A stretch of DNA of 45,917 bases from Deltaproteobacteria bacterium CG11_big_fil_rev_8_21_14_0_20_49_13 (GTDB lineage Bacteria > UBA10199 > GCA-002796325 > 1-14-0-20-49-13). The notes below the pieces were generated by a model that was given only the letters and a program-made list of their open reading frames with translations, did not search any database and had not been told where the DNA came from. The translations under genes and the position numbers were made by a program. Where the stretch lies: assembly GCA_002796305.1 (NCBI GenBank), contig PCWZ01000050.1, forward strand, positions 1 through 45,917, written 5' to 3'. The number at the start of each line of letters is the position of its first letter. Positions within the stretch are counted from its first letter, which is position 1. Positions 11,961 to 40,018 of this stretch are shown here, piece by piece.

Positions 11961-12040
11961 CCGCCAGCAAGGTTCCATGCCAGCAACGCCAGCAAAGTCA
12001 AACCTTGCTTGCTTTGCTGGCCTTGTTTGCCTTGCTGGCC
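11961..12040 (-). repeat. Tandem-unit quasi-palindrome, rpoA-rplQ gap
   Basis: Both arms are made of variants of the 8-9 nt unit GCCAGCAA and its complement TTGCTGGC. In the transcript they fold into a long imperfect stem with a short loop near 11999-12003. The element fills almost the whole gap. It belongs to the set discussed in the findings. Confidence 0.75.
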
Positions 12041-12045
12041 CTTGT

Positions 12046-13056
12046 TTATTCTATCTCTTTCGGTCTGTACTTTTCCGCATCCTTTATGTCGAAACCGTCG
12101 AGCTTCATACCTAATGAAAGCCCCATGGATGTGAGGATCTCTTTTATTTCGTTAAGGGATTTTCTTCCGAAGTTCTTCGTCTTGAGCATCTCAGGTTCTG
12201 ACCTCTCGCAAAGTTCGCCGATATACTTGATGCTGGCGTTCTGCAGACAGTTAGCGCTTCTGACCGAAAGTTCAAGCTCATCGACCCTTCTATAGAGGTT
12301 GGAGTTGAGCTTTGGCAGCTCTTCGATCATCGCCTCTTCTATCGGTTCCACCGTCTCTTCAAAGTTGATGAATATCTGTAGCTGTTCTTTGAGGATCTTT
12401 GCCGAGAACGCCACCGCGTCGTCCGGTCTGACGGAACCATCCGTCCAGACCTCCATCGTAAGCTTATCGTAATCTGTCATCTGACCTACACGGGCGTTCG
12501 TGACGTTGTAGTTGACCTTAAGGATAGGGGTAAAGATAGAATCGATAGGAACAACTCCGATAGGCTGTGACTCCTCCTTGTTGCGCTCTGCGGGGACGTA
12601 TCCTCTCCCCATCTTTACATAGAGCTCCATCTTGAGCTTGCCTTCAGGCCCGAGCGTTGCAATATGAAGGTCCGGGTTCAATATCTCTATCTTGGAGGAT
12701 ATTTTAATATCGGAAGCCTTGATGTCCTTCTCTCCGGAGGCGTTTATGGTCATTATGTCCTGTTCGCCTTCGTTAAGTTTTAAGCGCAGCTCTTTGAGAT
12801 TAAGGATGAGGTTCGTAACGTCTTCGCGAACCCCCGGAATGGTCGAGAACTCGTGAAGGACACCGTCTATTCTGACAGCGTAGATCGCGGCACCCTGAAG
12901 CGACGAAAGGAGGATGCGGCGAAGGGAATTACCCAAGGTTATGCCGTATCCGCGTTCCAGCGGCTTTGCAACGAACCTGCCGTAGGTCGCTGTAAGTGTA
13001 TTCTTTTCAACTTCCAAACCTTTTGGTTTAATAAGATCACGCCAATTTCTATACAT
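12046..13056 (-). CDS. rpoA: RNA polymerase alpha subunit
   Basis: The 336-aa protein is of normal length. The N-terminal dimerisation domain contains [21 protein letters not shown], and a hydrophilic linker follows. The C-terminal domain has [20 protein letters not shown] and [18 protein letters not shown], the helix-hairpin-helix that contacts UP elements and activators. It sits between rpsD and rplQ, as in the usual alpha operon. The start [14 protein letters not shown] at 13056 follows AGGAGTTAAAC. Confidence 0.98.
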
Positions 13057-13079
13057 GTTTAACTCCTATTTTTTTCAAC

Positions 13080-13145
13080 TACGTTCGGGGAACCCCTCAA
13101 ACCGCCTCCGGCGGGCCCGTGGTGACCTTCGCTTCGCTCAGGTCA
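13080..13145 (-). repeat. GC-rich hairpin cluster in the rpsD-rpoA gap
   Basis: The gap holds GGGGAACCCC, CCGCCTCCGGCGGG and the TGACCT/AGGTCA hairpin at 13123-13145, which overlaps the rpsD stop codon. It resembles the GC-rich intergenic repeats near 41100 and 43550 rather than the tandem-unit elements. Confidence 0.5.
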
Positions 13146-13772
13146 TTTAGAATAAAGTTCAACTATCATCTGTTCATTTATCGGCATAGTTATCTGATCG
13201 CGTGCCGGGTAGGCAGCGACGGTGCCGGTGAACTTTTCTTTGTTTATCTGTACCCATTCAGGGATACCGTGACGATCGGCCGATTCAAGCGCGTTCTTCA
13301 CCCAAACGCTTGCGCGCGATTTCTCTTTAATAGAGACAACATCGCCCTGTTTCACAATATATGAAGGGATGGTGTTCCTCTTGTTGTTCACAAGGAAATG
13401 TCCGAGCCTTACCATGTGTCTTGCTTCGGCACGCGATGTGGCAAAACCCATGCGGTAGACCATATTGTCGAGTCTGCGTTCCAACAGCTGGAGCAGGTTC
13501 TCGCCGGTGATGCCGTGCATTCTTTCGGCCATGGAGAAATAGCGCCTGAACTGGCGTTCCATGATGCCGTAGATACGTTTCACCTTCTGCTTTTCGCGAA
13601 GCTGAACGGCATATTCCGTAGGCTTTCTTCCGCCACGCTGGCCGTGCTGGCCGGGCGCGTAGGCCCTGCGCTCAATTGCGCATTTGTCGGTAAAGCAACG
13701 CTCGCCCTTTAAAAAGAGCTTTATTCCATCGCGCCTGCATAATCTACAAACTGCTTCGGTATACTTTGCCAT
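13143..13772 (-). CDS. rpsD: 30S ribosomal protein S4 (zinc-binding form)
   Basis: The 209-aa S4 nucleates 30S assembly on 16S rRNA. The N-terminus has the zinc-ribbon cysteines (CRLCRRDG, then CFTDKC), so this is the C+ type. The S4 RNA-binding domain follows with [20 protein letters not shown] and [10 protein letters not shown]-like elements, and the C-terminus is the usual [15 protein letters not shown]. It lies between rpsK and rpoA. Confidence 0.98.
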
Positions 13773-13778
13773 AATGCT

Positions 13779-14300
13779 TTATATTCTCCTTCTCTTGGGC
13801 GGCCTGCAACCGTTGTGCGGTATCGGAGTCAGGTCGCGGATGGATGAAACTCTTAATCCGGTATGTGCAATGGCTCTCACCGCAGACTCTCTCCCTGCGC
13901 CGGGGCCTCTAACATAGACTGTAACTGATTTCATTCCAAATTCGAGCGCCTTTCTGCATGCTGTTTCGCTTGCCAGCTGTGCGGCGAATGGAGTCCCTTT
14001 TTTGGAACCTTTAAAACCTTTTCCACCCGATGTGGCCCAGCAAAGAACGTTTCCGCTGGGATCGGCTATGGTAATGATAGTGTTGTTGAACGTTGCCTGA
14101 ATATTGACTATGCCTACAGCCACGTTCTTCTTGTTCTTCTTTTTCTTCACCACCGCGACCGCTTCACCTGCCACAGCTACCGCACCTTCAGGTTTCGCAC
14201 CTGCTGGTTTTGCGCCTTCCGGAGCCGCCGTTTTTTCGGGCTTCGGTGGTTTTGGTTTTGCATCCTTTGTCTCTTTTACTTCTTTGATCTCATCTGACAT
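13779..14300 (-). CDS. rpsK: 30S ribosomal protein S11 with a long N-terminal extension
   Basis: The conserved S11 body runs from about residue 58 ([19 protein letters not shown]) to the normal C-terminus ([18 protein letters not shown]). Before it is an extension of about 45 residues rich in Lys, Pro, Ala and Glu (with [12 protein letters not shown] repeats), making 173 aa instead of about 129. The start at 14300 has a GGAG box 7 nt upstream, so the extension is probably translated. It should be disordered on the 30S platform near the mRNA exit; its role is unknown. Confidence 0.97.
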
Positions 14301-14308
14301 ATTTAACT

Positions 14309-14377
14309 CCAGTTAGCAGGTTTCCAGGTTTCCAGGTTTCCAGGTTTTAAACCTGTTAACCTGGAAACCTGTTAACC
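14309..14377 (-). repeat. Tandem-unit quasi-palindrome, rpsM-rpsK gap
   Basis: The plus strand shows four copies of the octamer CCAGGTTT-like unit, then complementary copies around ACCTGGAA. The inner stem AAACCTGG/CCAGGTTT is perfect, and two-base mismatches recur each unit. It fills the gap and leaves only a few bases for the S11 ribosome binding site. Confidence 0.8.
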
Positions 14378-14381
14378 GCTT

Positions 14382-14768
14382 TTACTTTGCGCCCGGGGCC
14401 TGTTTCTTGCCTGCGATCGCCATGCGCGGCCTCCCCTTAGCTGTTCTTGCGTTGGTATGGCTCCTCTGGCCTCTAGCGGGGAGATGCCTTATGTGGCGAA
14501 GTCCCCTGTATGCACCAAGGTCCTTTAAAAGTTTGACGTTAGCCTGAACCTCGCGCCTGAGATCGCCTTCCACCTTGAACTTGGAATCGATGATCTCGCG
14601 GATACTGGCCACTTGCGCATCGGTAAGCTTCTCTGCGCGAAGGTTGGGGTCTATCTTTGCCTCTTCGCAAATATCATTAGCCACCTTTGCCCCGATCCCG
14701 TAGATATAACGGAGCGAGAAAGTTATCTTTTTTTTTGTAGGTATGTCTACACCTGCTAGTCTTGGCAT
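14382..14768 (-). CDS. rpsM: 30S ribosomal protein S13
   Basis: The 128-aa protein starts [19 protein letters not shown]. It has the helix-two-turns-helix part ([17 protein letters not shown]) and the conserved [21 protein letters not shown]-terminal segment that contacts the P-site tRNA and the A-site finger. It lies between rpmJ and rpsK as expected. Confidence 0.98.
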
Positions 14769-14776
14769 ATTTTATA

Positions 14777-14844
14777 TCGTGACTCGTGACTCGTGACTCG
14801 TGAATTGTAAAAAACAAGTCACGGGTTACAAGCTACAAGTTACG
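14777..14844 (-). repeat. Heptamer-armed hairpin, rpmJ-rpsM gap
   Basis: Three to four copies of the heptamer CGTGACT (plus strand) face diverged copies such as CAAGTCACGGGTTACAAGCTAC. By hand pairing the transcript gives a stem of about 30 bp with mismatches at pairs 14, 21 and 28. It ends three bases before the rpmJ stop. Confidence 0.8.
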
Positions 14845-14847
14845 TCA

Positions 14848-14961
14848 TTATCCCTGTTTTTGTTTGTGCTTAGGATTAGAGCAAATGACCCTTACTACGC
14901 CCTTCCTGCGCACTATCTTGCACTTCGTGCAAATCGTTTTAACTGATGATCTTACTTTCAT
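14848..14961 (-). CDS. rpmJ: 50S ribosomal protein L36 (zinc form)
   Basis: A 37-aa gene, too short for many gene finders: [20 protein letters not shown], then [17 protein letters not shown]. The zinc ligands C-x2-C, C and H are all present (CTKC, CSNPKH). It lies between infA and rpsM, its usual place. The start is at 14961. Confidence 0.97.
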
Positions 14962-14965
14962 ATTT

Positions 14966-15024
14966 GTTATGAGTTATGGGTTATGCGTTATGAGCATCTA
15001 CTCTCATCACTCACCACCTATCAC
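14966..15024 (-). repeat. Heptamer-armed hairpin, infA-rpmJ gap
   Basis: Plus strand copies of GTTATGA/GTTATGG/GTTATGC face CTCATCA/CTCACCA/CCTATCA. Hand pairing gives about 22 bp with G-A mismatches at pairs 6, 13 and 20. The outer end overlaps the infA stop codon. Confidence 0.8.
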
Positions 15025-15239
15025 TTTGCCCTGTAAACTACTCTTCCCCTTGTCAGGTCGTAAGGGGACAGCTCTATAGTCACCTTATCGCCCGGCAAGA
15101 TCTTTATAAAATGCATGCGCATCTTACCCGAAATATGCGCCAGTACTTTGTGTCCGGTAGGAAGCTCCACCCGAAACATTGCGTTCGGCAACGTTTCCAG
15201 TACCTTTCCTTCCACTACTATCGAATCTTCTTTTGCCAT
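15021..15239 (-). CDS. infA: Translation initiation factor IF-1
   Basis: The 72-aa protein starts [20 protein letters not shown], the standard length and OB-fold. It contains [20 protein letters not shown] and ends [13 protein letters not shown]-1 occupies the ribosomal A site during initiation. The start overlaps the map stop by one base (TAATG), suggesting translational coupling. Confidence 0.98.
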
Positions 15240-15982
15240 TACTTTCCCAAAACCAAAGGCCCGTTCTCAGTGATCGCCACCGAGTGTTCAAAATGGGCCG
15301 ATAATCCTCCGTCTTGTGTCACCACCGTCCAACCGTCATCCAAGACCTTGACCTTATATCCGCCGGAATTTACCATCGGCTCCAGGGCCAGCACCATTCC
15401 CGGTCTTAATTTAACGCCGGTTCCGGCCTCGCCGAAATTGGGCACCTGTGGATCTTCGTGAAGAGACGCTCCGACCCCGTGTCCAACAAAATCTCTGACA
15501 ACGGAAAATCCGTTCGCCTCCACATATTTCTGAACCGCTGCGGATATATCAAAGAGCCTATTCCCGACCTTCGCCTCACCGGTCCCAATATTAAGGGCCT
15601 CTTTGGTGATCCTAAGGAGCTTCTTCGCGGCATCTGTTATCTCACCAACGGGAAATGTCCTTGCCATGTCGCCGTAAAAACCCTTGTAAAGCACTCCGCA
15701 GTCGACCCCGATAATATCGCCTGTTTTAATTGCGCGCTTGCCGGGGATGCCGTGCACTATCTCCTGATTGATAGATGTGCATAGCGTGTGCTTGTAGCCC
15801 CTGTAACCCTTGAACGCCGCTTTTCCGCCGCGCTTAAGGATAAGCTCTTCCGCTATCCTGTCCAGGTCTCCGGTCGTTACACCTTCCTTGATCTCTTCCG
15901 AGATGACATCAAGAGCCTCGGCAACGATCTTATTTGCCGAGTTCATCTTTTCTATCTCTTCTCGAGACTTAAGAATGATCAT
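15239..15982 (-). CDS. map: Methionine aminopeptidase, type I
   Basis: Read from the ATG at 15982 ([18 protein letters not shown]), which overlaps the adk stop as ATGA; this gives 247 aa. A longer frame from 16006 lies inside adk and is not used. It removes the N-terminal methionine of new proteins. Metal ligands are recognisable: [21 protein letters not shown] (two Asp), the VGHGVG histidine, the LEPMVN glutamate and the [12 protein letters not shown] glutamate. The location between adk and infA is standard. Confidence 0.97.
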
Positions 15983-16623
15983 ACGACCTTGTCTATCAAA
16001 GAACAAATATCCTTAAAAACATCCGCCGGGTTCTTGCTCCCATCAATGTTCTTTAATTCCTTCTTATAAAAATCTATCAGGGCTTTGGTCTTTTCCTTGT
16101 ATACCTTCATTCTGTTCAGGATCGTCGTTTCCTTGTCGTCGTCACGCTGATAAAGCTCGCCGCCGCACTTATCGCAGATCGCCCCTTTTGATGAGGGCGA
16201 GAAAGCCACATGAAAGATGGCTCCGCATTTGCTACACATTCTGCGTCCTGAAAGCCTTTTTATCACTTCATCATCCGAAACATCTATATTTATAACTGCA
16301 TCAAGCGCTACGCCCTTCTTCGTCAAGAGATCCGCAAGTCCCTTTGCCTGTTCGATCGTACGAGGGAAACCGTCTAATATATATCCCTTGTTACAATCGG
16401 GTTCATCAATACGGGCAGACATGAGGTCCAACACCAACTCGTTAGCGACCAGTTCTCCCTTGTTCATGAACACTTCGGCTTTTTTACCGAGGGGCGTTCC
16501 GTTCTTTATCGCCGATCTCAGGATCTCGCCGGTTGAAAGCTGAGGAATGCCATAATTCTTGGCTATTCTCTCCCCCTGCGTTCCCTTGCCCGATCCCGGA
16601 GCTCCAAGTAAGACTAATTTCAT
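15979..16623 (-). CDS. adk: Adenylate kinase (zinc-LID form)
   Basis: The 214-aa enzyme interconverts ATP+AMP and 2 ADP. The P-loop is GAPGSGKGTQ near residue 7, and the AMP site includes STGEILRSAI and GFPRTIEQAKGL. The LID carries four cysteines (CSKCGAIFHV and CDKCGGEL), so it binds zinc. It overlaps map by four bases and follows secY by 2 nt. Confidence 0.98.
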   Translation of the reverse strand: MKLVLLGAPGSGKGTQGERIAKNYGIPQLSTGEILRSAIKNGTPLGKKAEVFMNKGELVANELVLDLMSARIDEPDCNKGYILDGFPRTIEQAKGLADLLTKKGVALDAVINIDVSDDEVIKRLSGRRMCSKCGAIFHVAFSPSSKGAICDKCGGELYQRDDDKETTILNRMKVYKEKTKALIDFYKKELKNIDGSKNPADVFKDICSLIDKVV

Positions 16624-16625
16624 AG

Positions 16626-17930
16626 CTAACCGCGCCTCCCCTTAAATCTACCGCCCGTCTTATTACCAAGGAATCCTTCATAATGACGGCTTAAGAGATG
16701 CGCTTCTATCTGTGCCACCGTATCCATTGCAACGCCTACAACGATCAAAAGCGATGTACCGCCAAAGGTAGATGCCAAGGAGACCGGAATGCCGAATTTA
16801 GATATCAATATGCTCGGCAGGAGACAGACAAAAGTGATATATAATGCTCCGCCAAGCGTGATACGCGTTAAAATGCTATCGATATAATCCGAGGTGCTCT
16901 TCCCAGGCCTGATGCCCGGAATATAACCGCCGAACTTACGCATATTATCAGCGACATCCACCGGATTGAACGTGACCGCAGTGTAGAAATAGCAGAAGAA
17001 TATGATAAGGCCCGCATAGAGGAAGTCGTGAACCCAGCCCTGACTAAGCATCGCCGCCACCGCCTGCATCTTATCTACCTTAACGAACTGAGCTATAGTT
17101 GCCGGGAACAATATTAAACTAGATGCAAAGATGGGAGGAATAACGCCCGCCATGTTAAGCTTGAGCGGCAAATGTGATTCCTGACCGCCATACATCTTTC
17201 TTCCGACTATCCTCTTGGCGTACTGAACCGGTATCCTTCTGTGTGCGCGTTCAAAGTAGATTATAAGAGCGACTATCCCGAATATGAAGGCCAAAAGAAT
17301 GAGGAAGCCGAAAAGACCGCCGAACTGGTCTTTTGTGTTCCATGCATCGCGGAAACCCGATGGAATACGCGTTACGATACCTGCGAAGATGATGAGCGAT
17401 ATTCCGTTACCGATGCCGCGTTCTGATATCTGTTCGCCTAGCCACATTAGGAAGCACGTGCCCGCGGCAAGCGTCACCATTGTCGTGATATAAAAGGCTA
17501 TTCCGCCGACTCCAGTTAAAAGAACGCCCTGCTGTTCAAGACCGTAACTGATGCCGAAGCCCTGAACAAGGCTCAAGAGAACTGTTCCGTATCTCGTATA
17601 CTGGGTTATCTTTCTCCTGCCTGAATCGCCCTCCTTTTGGAGTCTCTCAATGGCCGGAACTGCAACGGCCAAAAGCTGAAAGATAATGGAAGCGCTGATA
17701 TAAGGCATGATGCCAAGCGCAAAAACTGAGAAACGCTCGAGGGCACCTCCCGAAAAGAGATTAAAGATGTCAAAGACCGTTCCTTGAGACATGATCCGTT
17801 TCAACGCGTCTGCGTTGATGCCGGGGGTCGGGACGTAGATCCCGATTCTATATACCGCAAGCATAAATACCGTAAAAATTATTCTTTTTCTTAACTCCGG
17901 TATTTTAGCAATATTACCGACTGACTGCAT
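16626..17930 (-). CDS. secY: Preprotein translocase subunit SecY
   Basis: The 434-aa inner-membrane channel has ten hydrophobic segments in the usual order, starting [20 protein letters not shown]. Plug and loop motifs are visible: [47 protein letters not shown] and the C-terminal [18 protein letters not shown]. It forms the Sec translocon with SecE, also in this window. The N-terminus is short but normal for a lineage with adk-map downstream. Confidence 0.98.
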
Positions 17931-17931
17931 A

Positions 17932-18020
17932 TTAGGTTACCAGGTTAACAGGTTACTAGGTCAACAGGTCTTCAGATTGAACACGATCTCAACCTGCGAA
18001 CCTGACAACCTGCAAACGTG
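17932..18020 (-). repeat. Tandem-unit quasi-palindrome, rplO-secY gap
   Basis: The plus strand carries about five diverged copies of ACAGGTTA-like units and then complementary ACCTGCGA-like units. They form a long interrupted stem with a loop near 17980. It fills the gap. Confidence 0.75.
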
Positions 18021-18458
18021 CTAACTTACTATTTTTCCGCCTGCAGCCTCAATTTTAGCCTTGGCCTGCTTCGAGACCAGCGCACCTTTGATAGTTAAAG
18101 CGTTCCCGACCTTGCCGTCACCCAATATCTTCAGGAAATCGCCTTTCTTGTTGATGACACCCTTTTCAAGAAGCAGTTCCTGGGTGACTTCCGTACCCTT
18201 AGGAAGGGAGTTTAACTTTTCGACGTTGACCACAGTAACAACTCGCTTAAAGATGTTCGTAAAACCCTGTTTCGGAATACGACGTTGCAAAGGCATCTGA
18301 CCGCCTTCGAATCCGCGCTTGTGGTAACCGCCGGAGCGAGATTTCTGCCCCTTGTGACCTCTGGTCGACGTGCCGCCGTGACCGGTTGCATCGCCCCTAC
18401 CAAGCCTTTTTACCCTATGCGTTGCACCAACACCCGGTTGTAATTCATTTAGTTTCAT
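18021..18458 (-). CDS. rplO: 50S ribosomal protein L15
   Basis: The 145-aa protein starts [20 protein letters not shown] and contains the glycine-rich [20 protein letters not shown] segment that threads into 23S rRNA. Its start lies 14 nt inside the end of rpsE, so no room is left for rpmD, which normally stands between these genes. Confidence 0.98.
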
Positions 18459-18939
18459 CGTGATTATTACCTCTTAAATATTTTGTATACTCAAGCGTCC
18501 TGAGATTTAAAAGACCGTTAAGCGTGGCCTTGAGCACATTATGCGGATTGTTCGTTCCAATGCACTTCGTAAGAACGTTAGCGATACCGGCCGCCTCTGC
18601 CACTGCGCGTACAACGCTTCCGGCGATGACGCCTGTACCTTGGACTGCAGGCTTTAGAACGACGCTTGCTGCACCATAACGGCCCAATACCTCATGAGGA
18701 ATAGTACTGTTCTGGATGGGCACGCTCACCATGTTCTTCTTGGCGTGTTCTGTGGCTTTTCTGATAGCATCGGGAACTTCGTTGGCCTTGCCAAGCCCTA
18801 TGCCGACTCGACCGCGGCCGTCTCCTACAACGGCTACCGCCGAAAAGCTGAAACGTTTACCGCCCTTAACAACCTTCGCAACACGAGAGATGTGGACGAT
18901 CTTTTCAATATTCTCACTTGATTTGGTGTATTCGCGCAT
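18445..18939 (-). CDS. rpsE: 30S ribosomal protein S5
   Basis: The 164-aa protein has the double-stranded RNA-binding S5 domain ([38 protein letters not shown]) and the C-terminal domain with [20 protein letters not shown]5 contributes to decoding accuracy. The C-terminus overlaps rplO by 14 nt. Confidence 0.98.
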
Positions 18940-18947
18940 AGTTTACC

Positions 18948-19307
18948 TTAAAAGCTTAAGCCCTTTTCCCTTGCGGCATCCGCAAAGGCCTTGACCCTTC
19001 CATGATATGCAAATCCGTTCCTGTCAAAAACAACGGCCTTTATTCCCTTTGCAATAGCGCGCTCGGCCAAAAGTGCGCCGATCTTCTTGGCGCCTGCGAT
19101 CTTTGGCATATCCTTATCGCTCTTGAACGTCTTTTCAAGCGAAGAGGCGCAAACAAGAGTGCTATGTACCTCGTCATTGATGATCTGACCGGAAATGTGA
19201 CGGTCGCTCTTAAAAATGCTCAAGCGAGGGCGCGCATCGGTACCGGAAAGGTCCCTTCTGATCCTTTTTTTCCTTCTTAATCTTCCTTCTGTTTTTGTCT
19301 TAGCCAT
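18948..19307 (-). CDS. rplR: 50S ribosomal protein L18
   Basis: The 119-aa protein binds 5S rRNA. It shows the basic N-terminus (RRKKRIRRDLSGTDARPRLS) and the conserved C-terminus DRNGFAYHGRVKAFADAARE. It lies between rplF and rpsE, as expected. Confidence 0.98.
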   Translation of the reverse strand: MAKTKTEGRLRRKKRIRRDLSGTDARPRLSIFKSDRHISGQIINDEVHSTLVCASSLEKTFKSDKDMPKIAGAKKIGALLAERAIAKGIKAVVFDRNGFAYHGRVKAFADAAREKGLSF

Positions 19308-19309
19308 AC

Positions 19310-19861
19310 TTACTTGCCTCCAACCGCTGTTGCTGCCTTACCGACCTTTTTCTTGACGATCTCATCGGAATAGCGAACGCCTTTGCCTTTGTAGGGTTCG
19401 GGCGGACGCAGACGGCGCATCTGAGATGCTATTTCACCGACCAAATGTTTATCGGCACCGTTGATCGTAACACGTGCGCCTTTGTCTATTGTAATTTTGA
19501 GGCCTTCGGGTATCGGAAAGGTGATCAGGTGTGAATACCCAAGCGCGAACTCAACGTTCTTCCCCTTCAGCTCCGCCTTATAACCTACTCCGACGATATC
19601 GAGTATCTTCGTATACCCGTGAGATACGCCTACCGCCATGTTATTGATGAGCGAACGATATAGCCCGTGAAGCGCACGGGTGTGTCTCTCTTCGTTAGCC
19701 CTTCCGAGTGTCATGACCTTATCCTTGATCTCAAGGCTAAGTACGCTTGGAACGTTAAGGGTCAAGGTCCCTAATGGGCCGGTGACCTTCAGGACGCTAT
19801 CCTTGAAAGCCGCCGTTACCTTGTCCGCCATCACTACCGGTTGTTTTCCTATTCTTGACAT
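19310..19861 (-). CDS. rplF: 50S ribosomal protein L6
   Basis: The 183-aa protein starts MSRIGKQPVVMADKVTAAFK. It has the two repeated L6 domains; the second ends with RRLRPPEPYKGKGVRYSDEI, the conserved segment near the sarcin-ricin loop. Position and length are normal. Confidence 0.98.
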   Translation of the reverse strand: MSRIGKQPVVMADKVTAAFKDSVLKVTGPLGTLTLNVPSVLSLEIKDKVMTLGRANEERHTRALHGLYRSLINNMAVGVSHGYTKILDIVGVGYKAELKGKNVEFALGYSHLITFPIPEGLKITIDKGARVTINGADKHLVGEIASQMRRLRPPEPYKGKGVRYSDEIVKKKVGKAATAVGGK

Positions 19862-19871
19862 AATTTTATCC

Positions 19872-20270
19872 TTACCAGACCGTGCAGATCCATTCGCCTC
19901 CGACCTTCTGTTGTCGCGCCGAGGTATCGGTCAAGACACCTTTTGGCGTGGAGAGGATCGCGATCCCCATTCCGCCTCTGATCGGCTTGATCCCGTCATG
20001 GGCTACATATCTTCTGTGACCTGGTTTGCTTATCTTCGCAATCACCTCAATCGTGCGCTCTTTCTTAGCGGTATATTTAAGGATAATTACCAGGTTCTTT
20101 CCAGCTCCTTCGCCAACAGTTTCATACGCCTTAATATAACCCTCTTCCTTAAGAACGCGCGCAATGTCCTCTTTGAAACGCGAATGAGGGATCGCAACGT
20201 TCGGAAGAAGCGCCTTGTTGGCGTTCCTGATCCTTGTTAATAGATCTGCTATCGGGTCTGTCATGCTCAT
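19872..20270 (-). CDS. rpsH: 30S ribosomal protein S8
   Basis: The 132-aa protein starts MSMTDPIADLLTRIRNANKA and ends with GILTDTSARQQKVGGEWICTVW-like residues, the conserved rRNA-binding C-terminus. In E. coli S8 represses the spc operon by binding near rplE; no obvious copy of that site was seen here. Confidence 0.98.
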   Translation of the reverse strand: MSMTDPIADLLTRIRNANKALLPNVAIPHSRFKEDIARVLKEEGYIKAYETVGEGAGKNLVIILKYTAKKERTIEVIAKISKPGHRRYVAHDGIKPIRGGMGIAILSTPKGVLTDTSARQQKVGGEWICTVW

Positions 20271-20304
20271 AGTTTTTATTCTCCCCTGCCATCCGGCAGG
20301 CAGG

Positions 20305-21756: not shown

Positions 21757-21819
21757 TAAGTGCAGGAGTGTAGAAGTGCAGAAGTTGACTTCTGCACTCA
21801 AACACTCAAACACTTAAAC
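21757..21819 (-). repeat. Tandem-unit quasi-palindrome, rpsQ-rplN gap
   Basis: A perfect 10-bp inner stem (AGAAGTGCAG against its complement) is extended by units related to AGTGTAGA/AACACTCA. UU-type mismatches recur about every nine pairs. The outer end overlaps the rpsQ stop. Confidence 0.78.
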
Positions 21820-24120: not shown

Positions 24121-24129
24121 ATTGAATTC

Positions 24130-24198
24130 CAGTTATCAGTTATCAGTTATCAGTTATCAGTTTTTTGCCGACTACTGATGACCGATTACCGATTACTG
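24130..24198 (-). repeat. Heptamer-armed 31-bp hairpin, rplB-rpsS gap (clearest example)
   Basis: The plus-strand arm 24130-24160 is CAGTTAT repeated more than four times, followed by a 7-nt loop and the second arm at 24168-24198. Paired by hand in the transcript, 27 of 31 positions pair (four as G-U). The only mismatches fall at pairs 6, 13, 20 and 27, one per heptamer. Confidence 0.9.
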
Positions 24199-25310: not shown

Positions 25311-25319
25311 AAAATAAGT

Positions 25320-25353
25320 TTTTAAGTGCTTAAGCGTTTAAGTGTTTATAAGA
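25320..25353 (-). repeat. Short heptamer tract, rplD-rplW gap
   Basis: Diverged copies of TTAAGTG/TTAAGCG/TTTAAGTG give a weak self-complementary tract around CTTAAG. It looks like a degenerate or single-arm member of the hairpin set. Confidence 0.5.
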
Positions 25354-26628: not shown

Positions 26629-26636
26629 ATTTATTA

Positions 26637-26713
26637 TCAGGTTTATAGGTCTACAGGTCCTTAGGTTCAAAGGATTCAACCTTCCAACCTACTAACTTTC
26701 TAACCTACCAACC
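26637..26713 (-). repeat. Tandem-unit quasi-palindrome, rpsJ-rplC gap
   Basis: About five diverged octamers of the type AGGTTTAT, AGGTCTAC and AGGTCCTT are followed by complementary CCAACCTA/CTAACCTA-like octamers. The inner stem is AGGTT/AACCT. It is more degenerate than the other members. Confidence 0.7.
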
Positions 26714-30982: not shown

Positions 30983-31048
30983 TTAACTGTAGTGAACAGT
31001 TATTAGTTAACAGTTAACAGTGAACTGTTAACTAGTTAACTGTTAACT
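30983..31048 (-). repeat. Heptamer-armed hairpin, rpsL-rpsG gap
   Basis: Units such as AGTTAAC and AGTGAAC are arranged as near-perfect inverted copies. The inner stem of about 11 bp is centred near 31017 and is followed by interrupted pairing to both ends. It reaches the rpsL stop codon. Confidence 0.78.
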
Positions 31049-31418
31049 ATTTGGGCCTTTTGGCTCCGTATTTAGAGCGGCTCTGTTTTCTTTTTTCTAC
31101 TCCCATTGTATCCAACGTTCCTCTTACAATATGATATCTCACACCCGGAAGATCCTTCACACGGCCGCCTCTTACAAGAACAACTGAATGCTCCTGCAGA
31201 TTGTGACCTTCACCGGGGATATATCCTGTCACTTCAAGTCCATTGGTGAGTCTGATACGCGCAACTTTTCTCAAAGCCGAGTTAGGCTTTTTAGGCGTTG
31301 TTGTATAAACCCTTACGCAAACTCCGCGCTTCTGCGGGCATGTTTGAAGTGCCGGCGCGGCGTTGCGCCATCTGACCTTCGTCCTTCCAGAACTCACTAA
31401 CTGATTTATCGTTGGCAT
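31047..31418 (-). CDS. rpsL: 30S ribosomal protein S12
   Basis: The 123-aa decoding-centre protein starts [20 protein letters not shown]. The streptomycin-linked sites have wild-type residues ([10 protein letters not shown] and [13 protein letters not shown]). It is the first gene after a promoter and a tandem repeat leader. Confidence 0.98.
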
Positions 31419-31419: not shown

Positions 31420-31518
31420 TTAACTGCAGTTAATAGTTACTAGTAAACTGTTCACTGTTCACTGTTCACTGTTCACTGTTCACTGTTCACTGTTCACTGT
31501 TCACTGTTCACTGTTCAC
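31420..31518 (-). repeat. Ten-copy heptamer tandem repeat in the rpsL leader
   Basis: CTGTTCA is repeated ten times without error (31448-31517). Next to it lies a short diverged complementary region (31420-31447, with GCAGTTAATAGTTACTAG) that could pair with the first copies. It lies between the promoter and rpsL, so it would be part of the 5' leader. Copy number is probably unstable. Confidence 0.9.
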
Positions 31519-31536
31519 CTTCTTAAAAGGTGCGGA

Positions 31537-31565
31537 CTCGTAACAAAAACCCTTTGTATTGTCAA
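31537..31565 (-). promoter_or_regulatory. Promoter of the rpsL-rpsG-fusA-tuf operon
   Basis: TTGACA (31565-31560), 17 nt, then TACGAG (31542-31537) and the GC-rich TCCGC. The surrounding sequence AAGTCCTTGACA and TCCGC is shared with the promoter at 44923-44951, which supports both. It lies directly after rpoC on the upstream side. Confidence 0.72.
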
Positions 31566-31587
31566 GGACTTTACTCACGATTATTAT

Positions 31588-34500
31588 TTATGTCCTGGCC
31601 TCTACCTGTTCCTCGGTGACTATGACCTGTTCGGAGGCTAAACCTTCTTTATTTTCAACCTCTTCCGCCTCTATCTTAACATCGCGATATCTCCTAAGCC
31701 CCGTGCCTGCAGGTATCGGACGACCCATGATAACGTTCTCTTTTAATCCGCGCAGATAGTCAACTCTTCCTACCGAAGCCGCCTCGGTGAGGACCTTTGT
31801 TGTCTCCTGGAAGCTTGCCGCGGAGATGAAACTATCGGTCGAAAGAGCCGCCTTCGTGATACCTAAAAGGATAGTTTCCGCAACGGCCGGCTTTCCACCT
31901 TTTTTCTTAATAGCCTCATTGGCTTCGTCGAACGATGACTTGTCGACCTGCTCATCAACGAGGAACAGAGTGTCACCGGCATCTATGATGCGGACATTTC
32001 TGAGCATTCTTCTTACGATGACCTCGATATGTTTGTCATTGATGCGAACACCTTGCAATCTGTAAACTTCCTGCACTTCATCGACAAGATAACTTGCAAG
32101 AGCCTTCTCACCTTTGACCTTTAATATGTCATGCGGATTAGAAGAGCCGTCCATCAAAGCTTCGCCGGACTTCACAATATCTCCTTCGTGCGCTGTAATA
32201 TGTTTTCCGCGGGGGATCAGATATTCCATGGCGCCTCCTACAGGAGGAGTGACAATGATCTTACGTTTACCTTTTGAATCTTTCCCGAAGGAGACAACGC
32301 CGTCGATCTCAGTAATAATGGCGAACTCTTTCGGTTTTCTTGCTTCGAAAAGTTCGGCAACACGCGGAAGGCCGCCGGTGATATCTTTGGTCTTCGTAGT
32401 TTCGCGGGGAATCTTTGCGATAATATCACCAGCCTGCATCGCATTGCCTTCACCAACAACGATATGCGCGCCGACGGGCAGGAGATATCTTGCATCGCGT
32501 TCGCTCCCGGGTATCTTCAGTGTCTTGCCATCGGTGTCCTTGATGGAGATACGCGGCCGAGTGTTCGGATCCTTTGAAATAGAGATGACCTTCTGCGCAA
32601 GACCCGTGACCTCATCGACTTGTTCCGACATCGAGAGACCTTCGACGATATCTCCGAATTTGATAACGCCGGTGACTTCGGTCAGAATAGGCATCGTGTA
32701 AGGATCCCACTCGGCGATCAATGATCCGGCCTTGACCTTATCGCCTTCATTGGCAAGAAGCACTGCCCCGTAGATCAATTTATATTTTTCGCGTTCACGA
32801 CCGTTCTCATCGATTATGCTCGCTTCGCCGTTTCTGTTCATGACGACAAGCTTCTTTTCTCTGTTAACGACCGTGTGGACATTGTGAAATTTCAGAAAGC
32901 CGTCGTGACGAACTTCGAGGGCTGACTGCTCTGCCCTTCTGGATGCGGTGCCGCCGATATGGAACGTTCTCATCGTCAGCTGCGTACCAGGTTCGCCTAT
33001 CGATTGTGCGGCGATGACACCAACCGCTTCGCCGAGGGAAACCACGCGGCCTCTTGCAAGGTCGCGCCCGTAGCATTTTGCGCAGATACCGACCTTGCAC
33101 TGACACGTCATGGCAGAACGGATCACGACCTTTTCAATACCCGCCTCTTCGATCTTTGCCACGTTCTCTTCATCAAGTTCCGCACCTGCCGGAACGATGA
33201 TCTCACCTGTGATCGGATCCAAGATATCCTTTAATGAAACACGGCCCAAGATCCTGTCGCTAAGCGGTTCTATCACTTCGCCACCTTCAACTAGCGGCTC
33301 CATGATGATGCCGTCAAGTGTTCCGCAATCTTCATCTGTCACCGTGCAATCCTGAACGACATCGACAAGACGGCGCGTGAGGTAACCTGAGTTAGCTGTC
33401 TTTAAAGCTGTATCGGCCAAACCTTTACGGGCTCCGTGGGTAGAAATGAAGTATTGGAGTACGTTGAGGCCTTCACGGAAATTGGCGGTGATCGGCGTCT
33501 CGATGATCTCGCCTGATGGTTTCGCCATCAATCCGCGCATGCCGGCCAGCTGTCTTATCTGCTGAGCCGAGCCTCTGGCGCCGGAATCGGCCATGACGAA
33601 TATCGGGTTGAAGCCCGCCGGTTCATTAGCAGTACGACCGGCTTTGATCTCCCTCATCATTTCCGCGGCTACCTGATCCGTGGTTCCTGCCCATATATCG
33701 ACCACCTTATTATATTTTTCGCCTGAGGTGATGAGACCGTTCACATACTGATCTTCAACCTCGCCTATCTCGGCGTTCGCACCATCGATCAACTCCTGTT
33801 TCCTTGTGGGGATCTTCATGTCATCGATGCAGATGGAGATACCGGAGATCGTTGCGAACTTGTAGCCGTAGGAACGGATATGATCCGCAAGAAGTACCGT
33901 CTCTTTGTCACCGCAGAGGCGGTAACATTGATCGATAAGGCTTGCGATCGCCTTCTTGTCCATGACCTTATTCACGTGTTCTTCAAAGTCGATGACCTTG
34001 GGGACTATATCATATAATAGAACGCGTCCGACCGTTGTCTCACGGATACGTCCCTGGAGCCTCACCTTTACCTTTGCCTGAAGGTCGACCTCTCCCTCAT
34101 CGTAGGCGATAGAAAGTTCCGCAGGGGATGAAAAGATCCTCCCCTCGCCCTTTACGGAAGGACGTTCGCGGGTCATCCAGTAGAGACCAAGCACCATATC
34201 CTGCGTGGGACCGATGATAGGTCTGCCGTTGGCAGGGGATAAAATGTTGTTCGTGGACATCATGAGCACACGGGCTTCGATCTGAGATTCGGTCGAGAGC
34301 GGAACGTGAACAGCCATCTGATCACCGTCGAAGTCGGCGTTGAACGCCGTACAAACGAGCGGATGGAGCTGAATGGCCTTGCCTTCGATAAGTACCGGCT
34401 CGAACGCCTGGAGACCTAGCCTATGGAGCGTGGGAGCGCGGTTAAGCATCACTGGATGCTCTTTAATGACCTCTTCCAACGCATCCCAGACCTCAGGTGT

Positions 34501-35712
34501 CTCTTTCTCCACCATGCGCCTCGCGCTCTTGATGGTAGAAACGAGTCCTTTAAGTTCTAATTTGTGATAGATGAACGGCTTGAAAAGCTCGAGCGCCATC
34601 TTCTTCGGAAGACCGCACTGATGCAAACGAAGCTCAGGACCGACGACTATGACAGAACGGCCGGAGTAGTCGACGCGTTTTCCGAGGAGATTCTGACGGA
34701 AACGACCCTGTTTACCCTTGAGCATGTCTGAAAGCGAACGAAGGGCCCTGCGCGAAGGTCCTGTAAAAGGCCTTGCGCGGCGGCCGTTATCAAATAGAGC
34801 GTCCACGGATTCCTGGAGCATTCTCTTTTCGTTCCTGATGATGATCTCCGGAGCGTTCAGGTCCAATAAGCGGCGCAAACGGTTATTTCTGTTGATTACG
34901 CGCCTGTAGAGGTCGTTCAGATCGGATGTTGCGAATCTTCCGCCATCGAGCGGCACCAAAGGCCTTAGATCGGGCGGAAGAACGGGAACCACTTCGAGCA
35001 TCATCCATTCGGGACGATTTCCTGCGTTCTTAAAGTTCTCGGCAAGTTTCAACCTTCTTGAAAGTTTCTTGCGAGTTGCTTCTGATTCGGTCTTTGCAAG
35101 GTCTTTTCGTAAACGTTTTGCAAGCTCGTCAAGATCTACCTTCTTTAGAATGTCGCGGATAACCTCTCCGCCTGTGCCGACCTTGAAGACCGGACCGTAC
35201 TTTTCGATGGCCTTCTGATATTCATTTTCGGTAAGGATTTCTCCCTCTGCAAGATCTGTCGTCGTGGGATCGACCACCGTATAAGCCTCACAATAAAGAA
35301 CTCTTTCGAGAGCCTTAAGAGTGACATCGAGCATCAGGCCGAGACGGCTTGGCAGGCTCTTTAGAAACCAAATATGGGCAACAGGTGAAGCAAGCGTGAT
35401 ATGCCCCATCCTTTCGCGCCGCACCTTTGACTGGATGACCTCGACACCGCACTTTTCGCAAACAATACCTCGGTGTTTCATCCTCTTGTACTTACCGCAG
35501 TTACATTCATAGTCCTTGACAGGCCCGAATATCTTAGCGCAGAAAAGACCGTCGCGCTCGGGCTTGAATGTGCGGTAGTTGATGGTCTCCGGCTTTTTAA
35601 CTTCGCCGTGCGACCATTCTTTTATCCTTTCCGGGGAGGCAAGTTTTATCTTCACTCCCGAGTAAGAGAGAGGATCCTTCGGTTTTTCAAAAAAGCTGTA
35701 GATGTCTGGCAT
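31588..35712 (-). CDS. rpoC: RNA polymerase beta' subunit
   Basis: The 1374-aa subunit is complete. The N-terminal zinc finger is [20 protein letters not shown], the catalytic loop is [16 protein letters not shown], and a second zinc site is [19 protein letters not shown]. The trigger-loop and bridge regions ([20 protein letters not shown]) are present. It lies after rpoB on the same strand, separated by one of the hairpin repeats. Confidence 0.99.
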
Positions 35713-35718
35713 ATTGAT

Positions 35719-35792
35719 GTTAGTTATGAGTTATGAGTTATGAGTTATGAGCATCAAAGCCCATTACCCATTACCCATCACTCATCACTCAT
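35719..35792 (-). repeat. Heptamer-armed hairpin, rpoB-rpoC gap
   Basis: Four copies of GTTATGA on the plus strand face CCCATTA/CTCATCA copies. By hand pairing the transcript forms a stem of about 32 bp with an 8-nt loop, G-U pairs, and A-A or G-A mismatches at pairs 6, 13, 20 and 27. The outer arm overlaps the rpoB stop codon. Confidence 0.88.
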
Positions 35793-38700
35793 TTGGTCTC
35801 TATTAGTTCGGCATCCAGACAAAGCGCCTGGAGTTCCTTTATTAGAACGTTGAACGACTCCGGGAGGCCTGCCTCCAGGGTCAGATCGCCCTTAACGATG
35901 GCTTCGTACATACGAGTTCTGCCGACCACATCATCAGACTTGACCGTGAGGAACTCCTGCAACGCGTTCGAGGCGCCATACGCTTCCATCGCCCAGACTT
36001 CCATTTCTCCGAGTCTCTGTCCGCCAAACTGCGCTTTACCGCCGAGCGGCTGCTGGGTGACCAGCGAATATGGTCCTATGGACCTTGCGTGGATCTTGTC
36101 TTCGACCAGGTGGTGGAGCTTCATCATATACATGATGCCTACCGTGACCGGCTGGCTGAAAGGATCGCCGGTCTTGCCGTCAAAGAGAGTGGTCTGACCG
36201 TCCTCAGGGAGGTCGGCCAGCTTAAGACATTCCTTGATCTCGGATTCGCGTGCGCCGTCAAAGACCGGACAATCCATAAAGATGCCTTGACGAAGCGACC
36301 TTGCGAGGTCCTTAACTTGGGCCTCTGTGGCCTTTTCAAGGAATTCATCCATCGTATCGGACTTATAGACCTTCTTGATCGCCTTAACGAGGGTCTCTTT
36401 ATCGAATTTTGTGTGAAGGACCTTTTCGATCTGCTCTCCGAGACCGCGGGCAGCCCATCCCAAATGACACTCCAGGATCTGTCCGACGTTCATACGGGAA
36501 GGAACACCTAAGGGGTTCAAAACGATATCCACAGGCCTTCCGTCGGCCATGTACGGCATATCTTCTTCGGGGAGTATCCTTGAGATAACACCCTTGTTAC
36601 CGTGGCGGCCGGCCATCTTGTCGCCGACCTGGAGTTTACGTTTGATCGCAATGAATATCTTAACGATCTTGATCACGCCGGGAGGGAGTTCATCGCCCTT
36701 CTTGAGCTTCGTGATCTTCTGATCGTACATCATCTTGACAAGGTCTTCCTGCTCTTCAAGACCTTCTAATATTTCGGCTACCTCCTCTTCCACATCTTCA
36801 CCGCCGGAGACCGATATTTCGCCCCACCTTGACATCGGAATCTTCTCCAGTACGCTTTCGGTGATCTTTTTACCTGATGCGAGAAGTACCGTCTCTTCGT
36901 CCTCGGTCGCCACCTTTGAAGATGACGTCTTGCCAAGGAGAAGCGTTCTCATTCTTTTGGATGCCGTATCTCTAATGACCTTAAGTTCTGCTTCGAGGTC
37001 TTTTCTTAGTTTTGCTGTCTCTTCATCCTGAGGTTCGGCGTCGTTCTCAAGATCTATCCCTTCTCTAGAGAAGGTCTGTGCACCAATGACGATGCCGGCT
37101 ATTCCGGGAGGAACGCGAAGGGATGAGTCTTTAACATCTCCCGCTTTTTCGCCGAATATGGCGCGAAGGAGCTTTTCTTCAGGAGAGAGCTGCGTCTCGC
37201 CCTTTGGTGTGATCTTGCCTACAAGGACATCGCTGGGGTTGACCTCTGCGCCGATGCGGATGATACCGCCTTCGTCGAGGTGCGCCAGCGCTTCTTCGGC
37301 AACGTTAGGGATATCACGTGTGATATCTTCTTTGCCAAGCTTTGTATCTCGAGCAACGCACTCGAACTCTTCTATGTGGATGGATGTAAAGCTGTCATCT
37401 TTCACGACGCGTTCTGAGATCAGCATCGAGTCTTCGAAGTTATATCCGCCCCAAGGCATGAACGCTACCAACATGTTCTGGCCCAGAGCAAGCTCTCCGA
37501 TGTCCGTTGCCGAACCGTCAGCCAGGATATCACCGGCCTTCACTTTTTCACCCGGATGAACTATAGGGATCTGGTTGATGCAGGTGTTCTGATTGCTTCT
37601 CTGATATTTTGTGAGCTGGTAAACATCAATTTCTGGGCCCTTCTTTTTTTTCTTGGAATCTGAAGCCCTTGCCTTGTCCGGTTTCACAACTATCTTCTCG
37701 GCATCGACCGATAAAATGGTACCGTCGCTCTTTGCAATCGCCGTAACGCCCGAGTCACGCGCAACGATAGCTTCTATCTTTGTGCCGATAAGAGGGGCTG
37801 TTGAACGTAACAGAGGGACCGCTTGGCGTTCCATGTTGGAACCCATGAGGGCCCTGTTGGCGTCATCGTTCTCAAGAAACGGAACGAGAGATGCGGCAAT
37901 GGAGACCAGCTGATTGGGAGAGACATCCATTAACTGGACCTCTTCAGCCTTGGCCAGAATGTATTCGCCTCTCTTCCTGCACTGTACAGGTTCGGTGGTA
38001 AACTCGCCCTTTGAGCTGAGCGTCGCATTCGCCTGTGCGATGATATATTTCTCTTCTTCAAGTGCTGAGCAGTAAACGACCTCATCGGCCACGCGGCCGT
38101 TAACGACCTTTCTATAAGGCGTCTCAATAAAACCGAAATCGTTCACCCTGGCATGTGAAGATAAGCTGGCAATTAGACCGATATTCGGACCTTCAGGCGT
38201 TTCAATAGGACATATACGTCCGTAGTGCGTGAAGTGGACATCGCGTACTTCGAAGCCGGCTCTGTCTCTTGTGAGGCCGCCGGGTCCGAGAGCGGAGAGC
38301 CTTCTCTTGTGGGTTATCTCGGAGAGAGGGTTCGTCTGGTCCATGAACTGAGACAGCTGACTTGAGCTGAAGAATTCTTTGACCACCGCCATGACCGGCT
38401 TTGCGTTAACAAGATCGTGAGGCATGAGCGTATCAACTTCCTGCAAACTCATTCTTTCACGAATGGAACGTTCCATCCTGGCTAGGCCCACCCTGAACTG
38501 GTTCTCAAGAAGCTCGCCTACCGGGCGAACACGCCTGTTGCCTAAATGATCGATGTCATCCACTTCGCCGGAACCGTCCTTAAGGTCAAGAAGGTAGCGA
38601 ACGACCGCAAAGATATCTTCTTTACGAAGAGTTCCCATTTCAAGGGGGACGTCGAACCCGAACTTGTAGTTGATCTTGAGACGGCCTACCTTTGAAAGAT

Positions 38701-39916
38701 CATAAAGTTCAGGGTTAAAAAAGAGGTTCTCAAAGAACCTTGTGCCGGTCTCGATCGTAACGGGATCGCCCGGACGGAGACGTTTGTAGACCTCTATGAT
38801 CGCCTCTTCGGGGCTTGTCACCTTATCTATTAAGAGAGTATTCCTTAGATAACCGCCGATATTGAGCTCATCTATATAAAGAAGATCGATATTAGAGGCC
38901 TTGGCATTCTTGATCTTTTCGAACTTGTCGGATGTTAAAGGCTCGTTCACCGCAAGTATGATCTCGCCTGTTGCGGGATCTACTACATCGTGCGCTGAAA
39001 CTCGGCCCACCAGGTCCTCAAGCTCTACCGGGACTTCAACAAGCTTTGCCTTTTTAAGTTTTTCGATGGCGACACGGGTGAACTTCCTACCCTTCTTGAC
39101 CAGCGTCTCTCCATTTGAGGGATCCTTTATATCAGCGCCAGCCTTCTGGAAAAGAAGAAGCTCAGGGACGAAATTCTTCCATATCTTCTTTCCTTCCCAA
39201 GAGATCTTTTCGCTCTCATAGAAGTAATTAAGGAGGTCCTCAACGGAATATCCAAGGGCTCTTAAAAGGATAGTGACCGGTAGTTTTCTGCGCCTGTCTA
39301 TCCTGACATAGAGTATATCCTTTGCGTCGAACTCAAAATCGAGCCACGAACCGCGATAAGGTATCACCCTTGCGGAATAAAGGAGCTTGCCGGAGGCATG
39401 CGTCTTTCCTTTATCGTGTTCAAAGAATATACCGGGTGAACGGTGAAGCTGGCTGACGATAACGCGCTCCGTACCATTAATAATGAACGTGCCGTTCTCG
39501 GTCATCAGGGGTATCTCTCCGAAATATACCTCCTGCTCCTTGACATCGCGTATCGACTGAACGCCTGTCTGTTCGTTACTGTCCCAGATGATGAGGCGTA
39601 CCACGAGCCTCATCGGGGCAGCGTATGTCATGCCGCGGCTACGGCACTCTATCACGTCGTATTTCGGCTCGTCCAGCGCGTAGCTGACGAACTCAAGGGA
39701 CGAGGTCTGATTGAAGTCCTTTATCGGAAAAGAGCTCTTGAAGACCCCTTGAAGACCGGTGTCGGTCTTGTCGTTTGCGGCAACCTCAGCTTGAATGAAC
39801 TGCCGGAAGGAGGCCTTCTGCAATTCGATCAGGTTGGGGATGTCTGTAATCTTCTTTATACGGGAAAAATCCCTTCTAATACGGCGCGGCGTAGTTTTGA
39901 TCATTTCGTTACCCAT
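35789..39916 (-). CDS. rpoB: RNA polymerase beta subunit
   Basis: The 1375-aa subunit is complete. The rifampicin region reads [20 protein letters not shown] and [20 protein letters not shown], without known resistance changes by eye. The catalytic and clamp parts ([41 protein letters not shown]) and the C-terminal [20 protein letters not shown] are present. The start may be MGNEM at 39916 or the Met four codons later at 39904. Confidence 0.99.
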
Positions 39917-39960
39917 TAATGTTTACTGGTAAACTTAATTATAAAAACACACAACACGAA

Positions 39961-40018
39961 GGTCAGGCGCCGGACGTCAGGGGTCTGAATTCTGACCTCT
40001 GACATCCGACATCTGCCA
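39961..40018 (-). repeat. Tandem-unit quasi-palindrome, rplL-rpoB gap
   Basis: GGTCAGGCGCCGGACGTCAG on one arm faces GACATCCGACATCTGCC on the other, with a short loop near 39990. About 20 of 24 pairs form, several as G-U. The units are CGGACGTCAG-like and less regular than heptamers. Confidence 0.75.

What the first reader, a model, noticed from the sequence alone, without database searches (positions are those of the whole stretch)
11961..40018. Quasi-palindromes with tandem-unit arms fill the gaps of the ribosomal/RNA polymerase cluster
Twelve well-formed elements, plus weaker tracts at 25320 and 45857, lie in the gaps rpoA-rplQ, rpsM-rpsK, rpmJ-rpsM, infA-rpmJ, rplO-secY, rpsQ-rplN, rplB-rpsS, rpsJ-rplC, rpsL-rpsG, the rpsL leader, rpoB-rpoC and rplL-rpoB. 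Sequences differ, but the plan is the same: several copies of a 7-9 nt unit, a short loop, then diverged complementary copies. In the heptamer cases the mismatches return about every seventh pair. They are not seen in the R-M island or the flavoprotein operon. Shared architecture without shared sequence suggests either a mutational process (slippage plus template switching) or selection for a long RNA stem with periodic bulges.
Basis: partly seen in the sequence, partly recalled or inferred. Interest (0 to 1): 0.72.

Follow-up and report, generated by a model that had tools for sequence, protein, structure and literature searches.

The report
Dispersed hairpin repeats between ribosomal genes
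The odd palindromes between this bacterium's ribosomal genes are real, but they are copies of short hairpin-shaped repeats, built from 7-9 letter units, that have spread through the genome and sit in gaps that are almost absent in sister bacteria; similar repeats occur in several other bacterial phyla.

Summary
In detail: about a dozen gaps of the ribosomal/RNA-polymerase cluster contain two facing arms of 7-9 nt tandem units. Shuffled sequence gives none with the strict detector. The reading 'shared architecture without shared sequence' does not hold. In 614 kb of the same genome I found 31 such elements, and 29 of them have a significant relative elsewhere, the best pairs matching through both arms and the loop. 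The rpoA-rplQ element has about ten full-length copies with sharp ends and unrelated flanks. Sister genera have gaps of -4 to 15 nt where the window has 49-89 nt. Copies also lie in rRNA-operon spacers and in frame inside carB and rlmN, so the elements are not confined to this cluster, although they are roughly ten-fold enriched there per gap. Among copies of one family compensatory changes are almost absent, so most of the pairing is inherited with the copy. Acidobacteria, Chloroflexi, Rhodanobacteraceae and Verrucomicrobiota ribosomal clusters hold equivalent period-7 elements. Best reading: small non-autonomous hairpin insertions with tandem-unit arms, tolerated at stop-start junctions and protein loops. 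This is a variant of a scattered known kind (Geobacter and Xanthomonas heptamer pairs, Nostoc P6b, REP/RPE/MITE). How they spread is unknown.

The parts
11966..12045 (-). rpoA-rplQ element, 9-nt units (GCCAGCAAG/GCAAGCAAG); member of a dispersed family with about ten full-length copies in this genome
   Evidence: MFE z -5.9
14309..14377 (-). rpsM-rpsK element, 8-nt units (AACCTGGA / CAGGTTTC); relatives at 17931-18030 and in L213 and L087
   Evidence: z -7.9
14774..14842 (-). rpmJ-rpsM element, 7-nt units (GTGACTC / GTRACTN); relatives in L089, L207 and between tRNAs of the rRNA operon in L209
14957..15020 (-). infA-rpmJ element, 7-nt units (GTTATGA); relative of the rpoB-rpoC element, 79% identical
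17934..18025 (-). rplO-secY element, 8-nt units (AGGTTAAC); relatives at 14309 and 26634 in the window and in L213
   Evidence: z -4.5
21757..21819 (-). rpsQ-rplN element, 8-nt units; the gap is 68 nt here and -4 nt in sister genus G002
   Evidence: z -7.7
24128..24198 (-). rplB-rpsS element, 7-nt units; the 3' arm in sense is (TAACTGA)n; the gap is 81 nt here and -1 nt in both sister genera; relative in L221 at about 15161
   Evidence: z -8.1
25315..25348 (-). rplD-rplW weak tract of 8-nt units; stem not better than shuffled; the gap is 49 nt here and 3-15 nt in sisters
26634..26713 (-). rpsJ-rplC element, 8-nt units, degenerate; relative of the rplO-secY element; the gap is 89 nt here and 14 nt in G001
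30984..31051 (-). rpsL-rpsG element, 7-nt units (AGTTAAC); other members of the class have different-unit elements in the same gap (G022, G045)
31425..31520 (-). rpsL leader (rpoC-rpsL gap): 10-copy direct array ACTGTTC with a poor partner arm
   Evidence: (z -1.8)
35716..35790 (-). rpoB-rpoC element, 7-nt units (GGGTAAT / CTCATAA)
   Evidence: z -6.7
39945..40020 (-). rplL-rpoB element, 7-nt units (GGTCAGA / TCTGACA); weak relative in L206 upstream of metK
   Evidence: z -4.9
45853..45882 (.). weak 7-nt tract (GGTGATC/AGTTATC), related to arms inside carB (L209) and in L098

Best explanation
The palindromes are members of several families of small, non-coding, dispersed hairpin elements of roughly 60-95 nt. 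Each element has a left arm of degenerate 7-9 nt tandem units, a short loop, and a right arm of complementary units. Shown: family members at unlinked loci resemble each other through arms and loop; for the best family the ends are sharp and the flanks unrelated; orthologous sites are nearly empty in sister genera; sites include stop-start junctions in operons, rRNA-operon spacers and in-frame loops of conserved enzymes. Inferred: the elements are copied to new sites as a hairpin unit by a host or transposase-related process that I could not identify, are then enlarged or shrunk and homogenised arm by arm by slippage, and persist mainly because they land where they do little harm. The transcribed hairpin probably forms, but it is mostly inherited with the copy rather than maintained by selection. 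Loss of the palindrome nuclease SbcCD may help such elements survive; that is only a lead.
For: 29 of 31 elements in 614 kb of G000 have a significant relative elsewhere, the top pairs aligning through both arms and the loop; 12 of 14 window tracts have a copy covering at least 70% elsewhere in the genome or window. The rpoA-rplQ family has about 10 full-length copies in G000, 2 in sister genus G001, 1 in G022 and none in G002, with sharp ends and unrelated flanks. Near-empty sites: rplB-rpsS 81 versus -1/-1 nt, rpsQ-rplN 68 versus -4, rplD-rplW 49 versus 3/15, rpsJ-rplC 89 versus 14. In-frame inserts in CarB (two) and RlmN sit where E. coli and other phylum members have shorter loops. Unit families recur: an identical 7-nt unit elsewhere for 25 of 49 elements against 3.5 for letter-shuffled units. 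Genomes of Acidobacteria and Chloroflexi show the same, each with its own families.
Against: No target-site duplication or dedicated mobilising enzyme was found; Y1 transposases occur in all 16 genomes tested, with or without many elements. Shared units inflate similarity scores between elements of one unit class, and the shuffled null destroys tandem units, so the number of true copies is an upper estimate except for the 9-nt family. Enrichment in the ribosomal cluster is not explained by neutral insertion alone. Two window tracts (21746, 25311) have no detected relative in the third of the genome read.
Confidence: 0.68

Rival explanations
1. Local origin: each palindrome arises in place by template switching (quasi-palindrome formation) and its arms grow by slippage of 7-9 nt units, with no copying between loci.
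For: Arms are homogeneous inside but differ from each other at recurring positions, as slippage would give. In a Verrucomicrobiota family the same gap holds different units in close relatives.
Against: Unlinked elements share arms, loop and ends, and the same units recur far above the letter-shuffled null. Sister genera have essentially no spacer in these gaps from which to build. MutS is present, so loss of that repair step is not the cause of slippage.
Confidence: 0.17
2. Functional intercistronic RNA stems: the hairpins are kept by selection, for example to set mRNA stability, processing or spacing of translation between ribosomal genes.
For: Strong folding z-scores; enrichment in the ribosomal cluster, 9 of 20 versus 9 of 193 co-directional gaps (Fisher); excess of G.U over A.C mismatches in sense, 140:95 and 40:14 in homologous Verrucomicrobiota sets; 5' arm G>C in 13 of 14 oriented G000 elements.
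Against: Almost no compensatory change in the one family with 12 aligned copies; antisense folding is nearly as stable; near-empty gaps in sister genera with the same genes; elements also inside coding sequence, where they only add residues; orientation bias absent or reversed in Acidobacteria.
Confidence: 0.12
3. Assembly or binning artefact.
For: The genome is in 92 contigs, and low-complexity palindromes can be misassembled.
Against: Elements lie inside continuous operons, stay in frame in carB and rlmN, and similar elements occur in independent genomes of several phyla from different studies.
Confidence: 0.02

Closest known systems
Heptanucleotide repeat elements of Geobacter metallireducens (PMC2700814: 49-copy element with four GGGACCG repeats; class 3 sites of five tandem MTYCTGA heptamers, drawn as hairpins)
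   Same: Multicopy, heptamer-built, intergenic and intragenic, and for class 3 displayed as two facing strands
   Different: Interpreted there as regulatory elements or regulator binding sites; different units; no empty-site or in-frame insertion evidence in the passages read
GGGAATC heptamer repeats of Xanthomonas, with 70-75 convergent inverted pairs (PMC4692102)
   Same: Heptamer arrays in facing pairs, mostly between co-directional genes, G-rich arm near the stop codon and C-rich arm near the next start
   Different: One G-quadruplex-forming unit, described as located at conserved genomic positions between two Xanthomonas species; here many units with fast turnover
TAACTGA direct repeats of Beggiatoaceae, cyanobacteria and Bacteroidetes (PMC4679880)
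   Same: The same heptamer occurs in the right arm of the rplB-rpsS element; lies just upstream of start codons, including ribosomal genes
   Different: Direct repeats without a facing arm, apart from a single inverted case
Degenerate heptanucleotide hairpin (P6b) of the Nostoc tRNA-Leu intron (PMC3488679)
   Same: Degenerate heptamers in two arms that pair into a hairpin; copy number varies
   Different: One locus inside an intron, not a dispersed element
Rickettsia palindromic elements and other MITE/REP-type palindromes (review PMC10969869)
   Same: Dispersed palindromes, several families per genome, in-frame insertions in metabolic genes
   Different: About 150 bp, no 7-9 nt unit arms described in the passages read

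Membership tests
MITE (miniature inverted-repeat transposable element) | terminal inverted repeats | tested here: met
   ends GCCAGCAA ... TTGCTGGC in the 9-nt family, and arms largely complementary
MITE (miniature inverted-repeat transposable element) | target-site duplication | tested here: not met
   none evident by inspection of the flanks of the 9-nt family copies; lack of it is also compatible with other insertion routes
MITE (miniature inverted-repeat transposable element) | parent transposase with the same ends | not tested
   only the presence of Y1 transposases was surveyed
REP elements mobilised by RAYT (Y1) transposases | 20-40 bp palindrome with a GTAG or CGTC tag at one end (PMC3733652 abstract) | tested here: not met
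   elements are 60-95 nt and the aligned ends carry no such tag
REP elements mobilised by RAYT (Y1) transposases | Y1 transposase gene in the genome | tested here: met
   8 matches in G000, but matches also in all other genomes tested, so not discriminating
Rickettsia palindromic elements | in-frame insertion into conserved genes | tested here: met
   carB (two) and rlmN
Rickettsia palindromic elements | sequence match to an RPE family | not tested
   no RPE sequences were compared
Xanthomonas/Nostoc G-rich heptamer repeats | GGG-tract in each unit | tested here: not met
   no window unit is of the GGGNATC type; only the TAATGGG units of the rpoB-rpoC left arm have a G-tract
Rfam RNA families | match at gathering score | tested here: not met
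   only tRNAs found in window 11000-45917

The most novel reading that the evidence does not exclude
A widespread, so far unnamed class of mobile hairpin elements whose arms are tandem arrays of about seven nucleotides. It recurs in at least five bacterial phyla with genome-specific sequence families, prefers stop-start junctions of operons and enzyme surface loops, and is moved by a process that acts on the hairpin rather than on a fixed sequence, which would explain why architecture is conserved and sequence is not.
Probability: 0.3. Interest if true: 0.78.

Novelty: new variant of a known kind. Interest (0 to 1): 0.55.

Why it matters
It links several separate curiosities (Geobacter heptamer elements, Xanthomonas inverted GGGAATC pairs, TAACTGA repeats, Nostoc P6b) to one architecture that recurs across phyla, and it shows such elements inserting into the most conserved operon of the cell and into conserved enzymes. 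It also turns open questions into testable ones: why the period is seven, what copies the hairpin, and whether loss of SbcCD lets palindromes accumulate.

Tried and rejected
Rfam search for a known leader or riboswitch: nothing but tRNAs. Idea that 7-nt units are favoured because they carry stop codons in all frames: weak in two sets (P 0.04 and 0.03) and contradicted in Verrucomicrobiota. Loss of mismatch repair: MutS present. A specific link with Y1 (RAYT) transposases: present in every genome tested. SbcCD loss: SbcD found in only 2 of 16 genomes, including element-rich and element-poor ones, against 33 of 50 in a mixed panel; confounded by relatedness and MAG gaps, kept as a lead only. RNA-level selection by G.U:A.C asymmetry: suggestive but not independent, and not supported in the best single family. 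One count of structure pairs failed on string length; pair counts were used.
Full report
WHAT IS THERE. The window is contig C50 of a 1.96-Mb genome in 92 contigs. Its nearest named relatives by RplB are two 'Deltaproteobacteria' MAGs at 78-80% identity, which from matching contig lengths and identities are its two sister genera G002 and G001. On the minus strand runs a cluster of ribosomal-protein, RNA-polymerase and translation-factor genes. A detector that requires periodicity in both arms plus complementarity finds nothing in shuffled sequence with a 24-nt arm and about 0.3 hits per pass with a looser 21-nt arm. Folding z-scores of the best gaps lie between -4.5 and -8.1; a few named tracts (25311, 26671, the rpsL leader) do not fold clearly better than shuffled sequence.

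NOT ONLY THE RIBOSOMAL CLUSTER. I read 614 kb of the same genome as separate stretches. It holds 31 paired elements of period 7-9. Of the co-directional gaps of 30 nt or more, 9 of 20 in the cluster and 9 of 193 elsewhere have one (Fisher P = 2.5e-6, or 1.9e-5 on a conservative count). Elsewhere they lie, for example, in the rRNA operon spacer beside tRNA genes (L209), upstream of metK (L206), between cell-wall genes (L221) and inside reading frames (gene names there are read from the translations). Of the 7-nt arrays, 30 of 51 have an inverted partner within 90 nt, against 1 of 51 with shuffled flanks; 6-nt arrays have none and 12-nt arrays 2 of 15.

THEY ARE FAMILIES OF COPIES. All-against-all comparison gives 29 of 31 elements a relative above the shuffled maximum, and the top alignments run through left arm, loop and right arm. 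Twelve of the 14 window tracts have a copy covering at least 70% of their length elsewhere. The clearest case is the rpoA-rplQ element: a DNA search of 46 genomes of the phylum finds about ten full-length copies in this genome, two in sister genus G001, one in G022 and none in G002 or most others. Aligned copies have sharp ends (GCCAGCAAGG ... CTTTGCTGGC), unrelated flanks and no evident target duplication. Seven-nt units recur between loci: 25 of 49 elements share an identical unit with another, against 3.5 for letter-shuffled units. A caution: the shuffled null destroys tandem units, so for 7- and 8-nt families part of the score reflects shared units only.

NEAR-EMPTY SITES. In the two sister genera the same gene pairs are almost abutting: rplB-rpsS -1 nt in both (81 nt in the window), rpsQ-rplN -4 (68), rplD-rplW 3 and 15 (49), rpsJ-rplC 14 (89). 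In the window the element fills the space from just after the stop codon to a short box before the next start. Two elements sit in carB and one in rlmN; the encoded residues are extra relative to E. coli CarB and RlmN and to other members of the phylum. Sister genus G002 has different inserts at the same loops.

OTHER PHYLA. In ribosomal clusters of other bacteria with 42-65% G+C, the same detector (28-nt arm) gives 16 hits, all of period 7, with none in shuffled sequence. Carriers are Acidobacteria (L010, L022), Chloroflexi (L025, L031), Rhodanobacteraceae (L068, L074) and Verrucomicrobiota (L077, L079, L082). In the Acidobacteria and Chloroflexi genomes elements in successive gaps are relatives of each other. 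In one Verrucomicrobiota family the rplB-rpsS gap holds different hairpins in close relatives (several unit types, plus non-periodic hairpins), and some members have an empty gap: fast turnover with a kept architecture.

RNA OR DNA. If the stem were under strong RNA-level selection, family members should show compensatory pairs. In the 12-sequence family alignment only 1 of 22 pairs has a double change, and A-C breaks are about as common as G-U changes. Across 94 oriented elements G.U exceeds A.C 140:95, and in seven sets of homologous Verrucomicrobiota elements 40:14. These counts are not independent and could also reflect strand-biased mutation. In G000 the 5' arm has more G than C in 13 elements and fewer in 1; Acidobacteria show no such bias or the reverse. 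I conclude that the pairing is mainly inherited with the copy, with room for a weak RNA-level constraint.

MECHANISM. Best supported: small non-autonomous hairpin insertions that spread between loci, with slippage remodelling their arms. Shown: copies, sharp ends in one family, near-empty sites, in-frame insertions. Inferred: the copying step and its enzyme. MutS is present. Y1 transposases are present everywhere tested and so do not discriminate. SbcD was not detected in G000 or in most carriers but is found in 33 of 50 genomes of a mixed panel; relatedness and MAG gaps confound this, so it is a lead only.

WHAT IS KNOWN. Heptamer-built multicopy elements were described in Geobacter metallireducens (PMC2700814). 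Facing GGGAATC pairs are known in Xanthomonas, with the same placement between co-directional genes (PMC4692102). TAACTGA arrays occur upstream of genes including ribosomal ones (PMC4679880); the window's rplB-rpsS element carries exactly this heptamer in its right arm. The Nostoc intron P6b hairpin is made of degenerate heptamers (PMC3488679). In-frame palindromic insertions are known from Rickettsia (PMC10969869). What I did not find described is the combination: dispersed families with unit-array arms, near-empty sites in the ribosomal operon, in-frame copies in enzymes, and recurrence across phyla. The literature library is incomplete, so this is not a claim of priority.

Noticed in passing
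L209 about 6230-6460 (G000 rRNA operon): Two such elements lie in the 16S-23S spacer on either side of a tRNA gene, so they are carried in a stable-RNA precursor as well.
   Followed up: partly
L213 rlmN residues 337-363: A second repeat-derived insert (ACHSRESGN...) in RlmN has copies at several other places in G000 and G002: another class of dispersed coding repeat.
   Followed up: no
L270 and L280 (G002 carB and rlmN): The sister genus has different inserts at the same enzyme loops where G000 has heptamer hairpins, which suggests shared permissive sites for unrelated repeats.
   Followed up: partly
L087, L092 (about 11272), L216 (about 6161): Heptamer arrays appear to encode signal-peptide-like hydrophobic stretches (for example FLPLASCFLLLL) at the N-termini of predicted exported proteins.
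   Followed up: no
window 41049-41214: The rplJ upstream gap contains a different GC-rich repeat with about 25 partial matches in 614 kb, including window 43516-43635 and L208.
   Followed up: no
G000 and relatives: SbcD (palindrome nuclease) was not detected in 14 of 16 genomes tested, G000 included, against 33 of 50 with a match in a mixed panel.
   Followed up: partly
L173-L202, L243-L262: In a Verrucomicrobiota family the rplB-rpsS gap swaps between heptamer hairpins, GGAGGGCGGAGCTCTG hairpins, GTAGCCGCGGCCCTG hairpins and an empty state.
   Followed up: partly
L204 15609-16633: The sequence between two genes looks like a broken REP-type transposase gene interrupted by a palindromic repeat; read by eye only, and parts are masked as N.
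   Followed up: no
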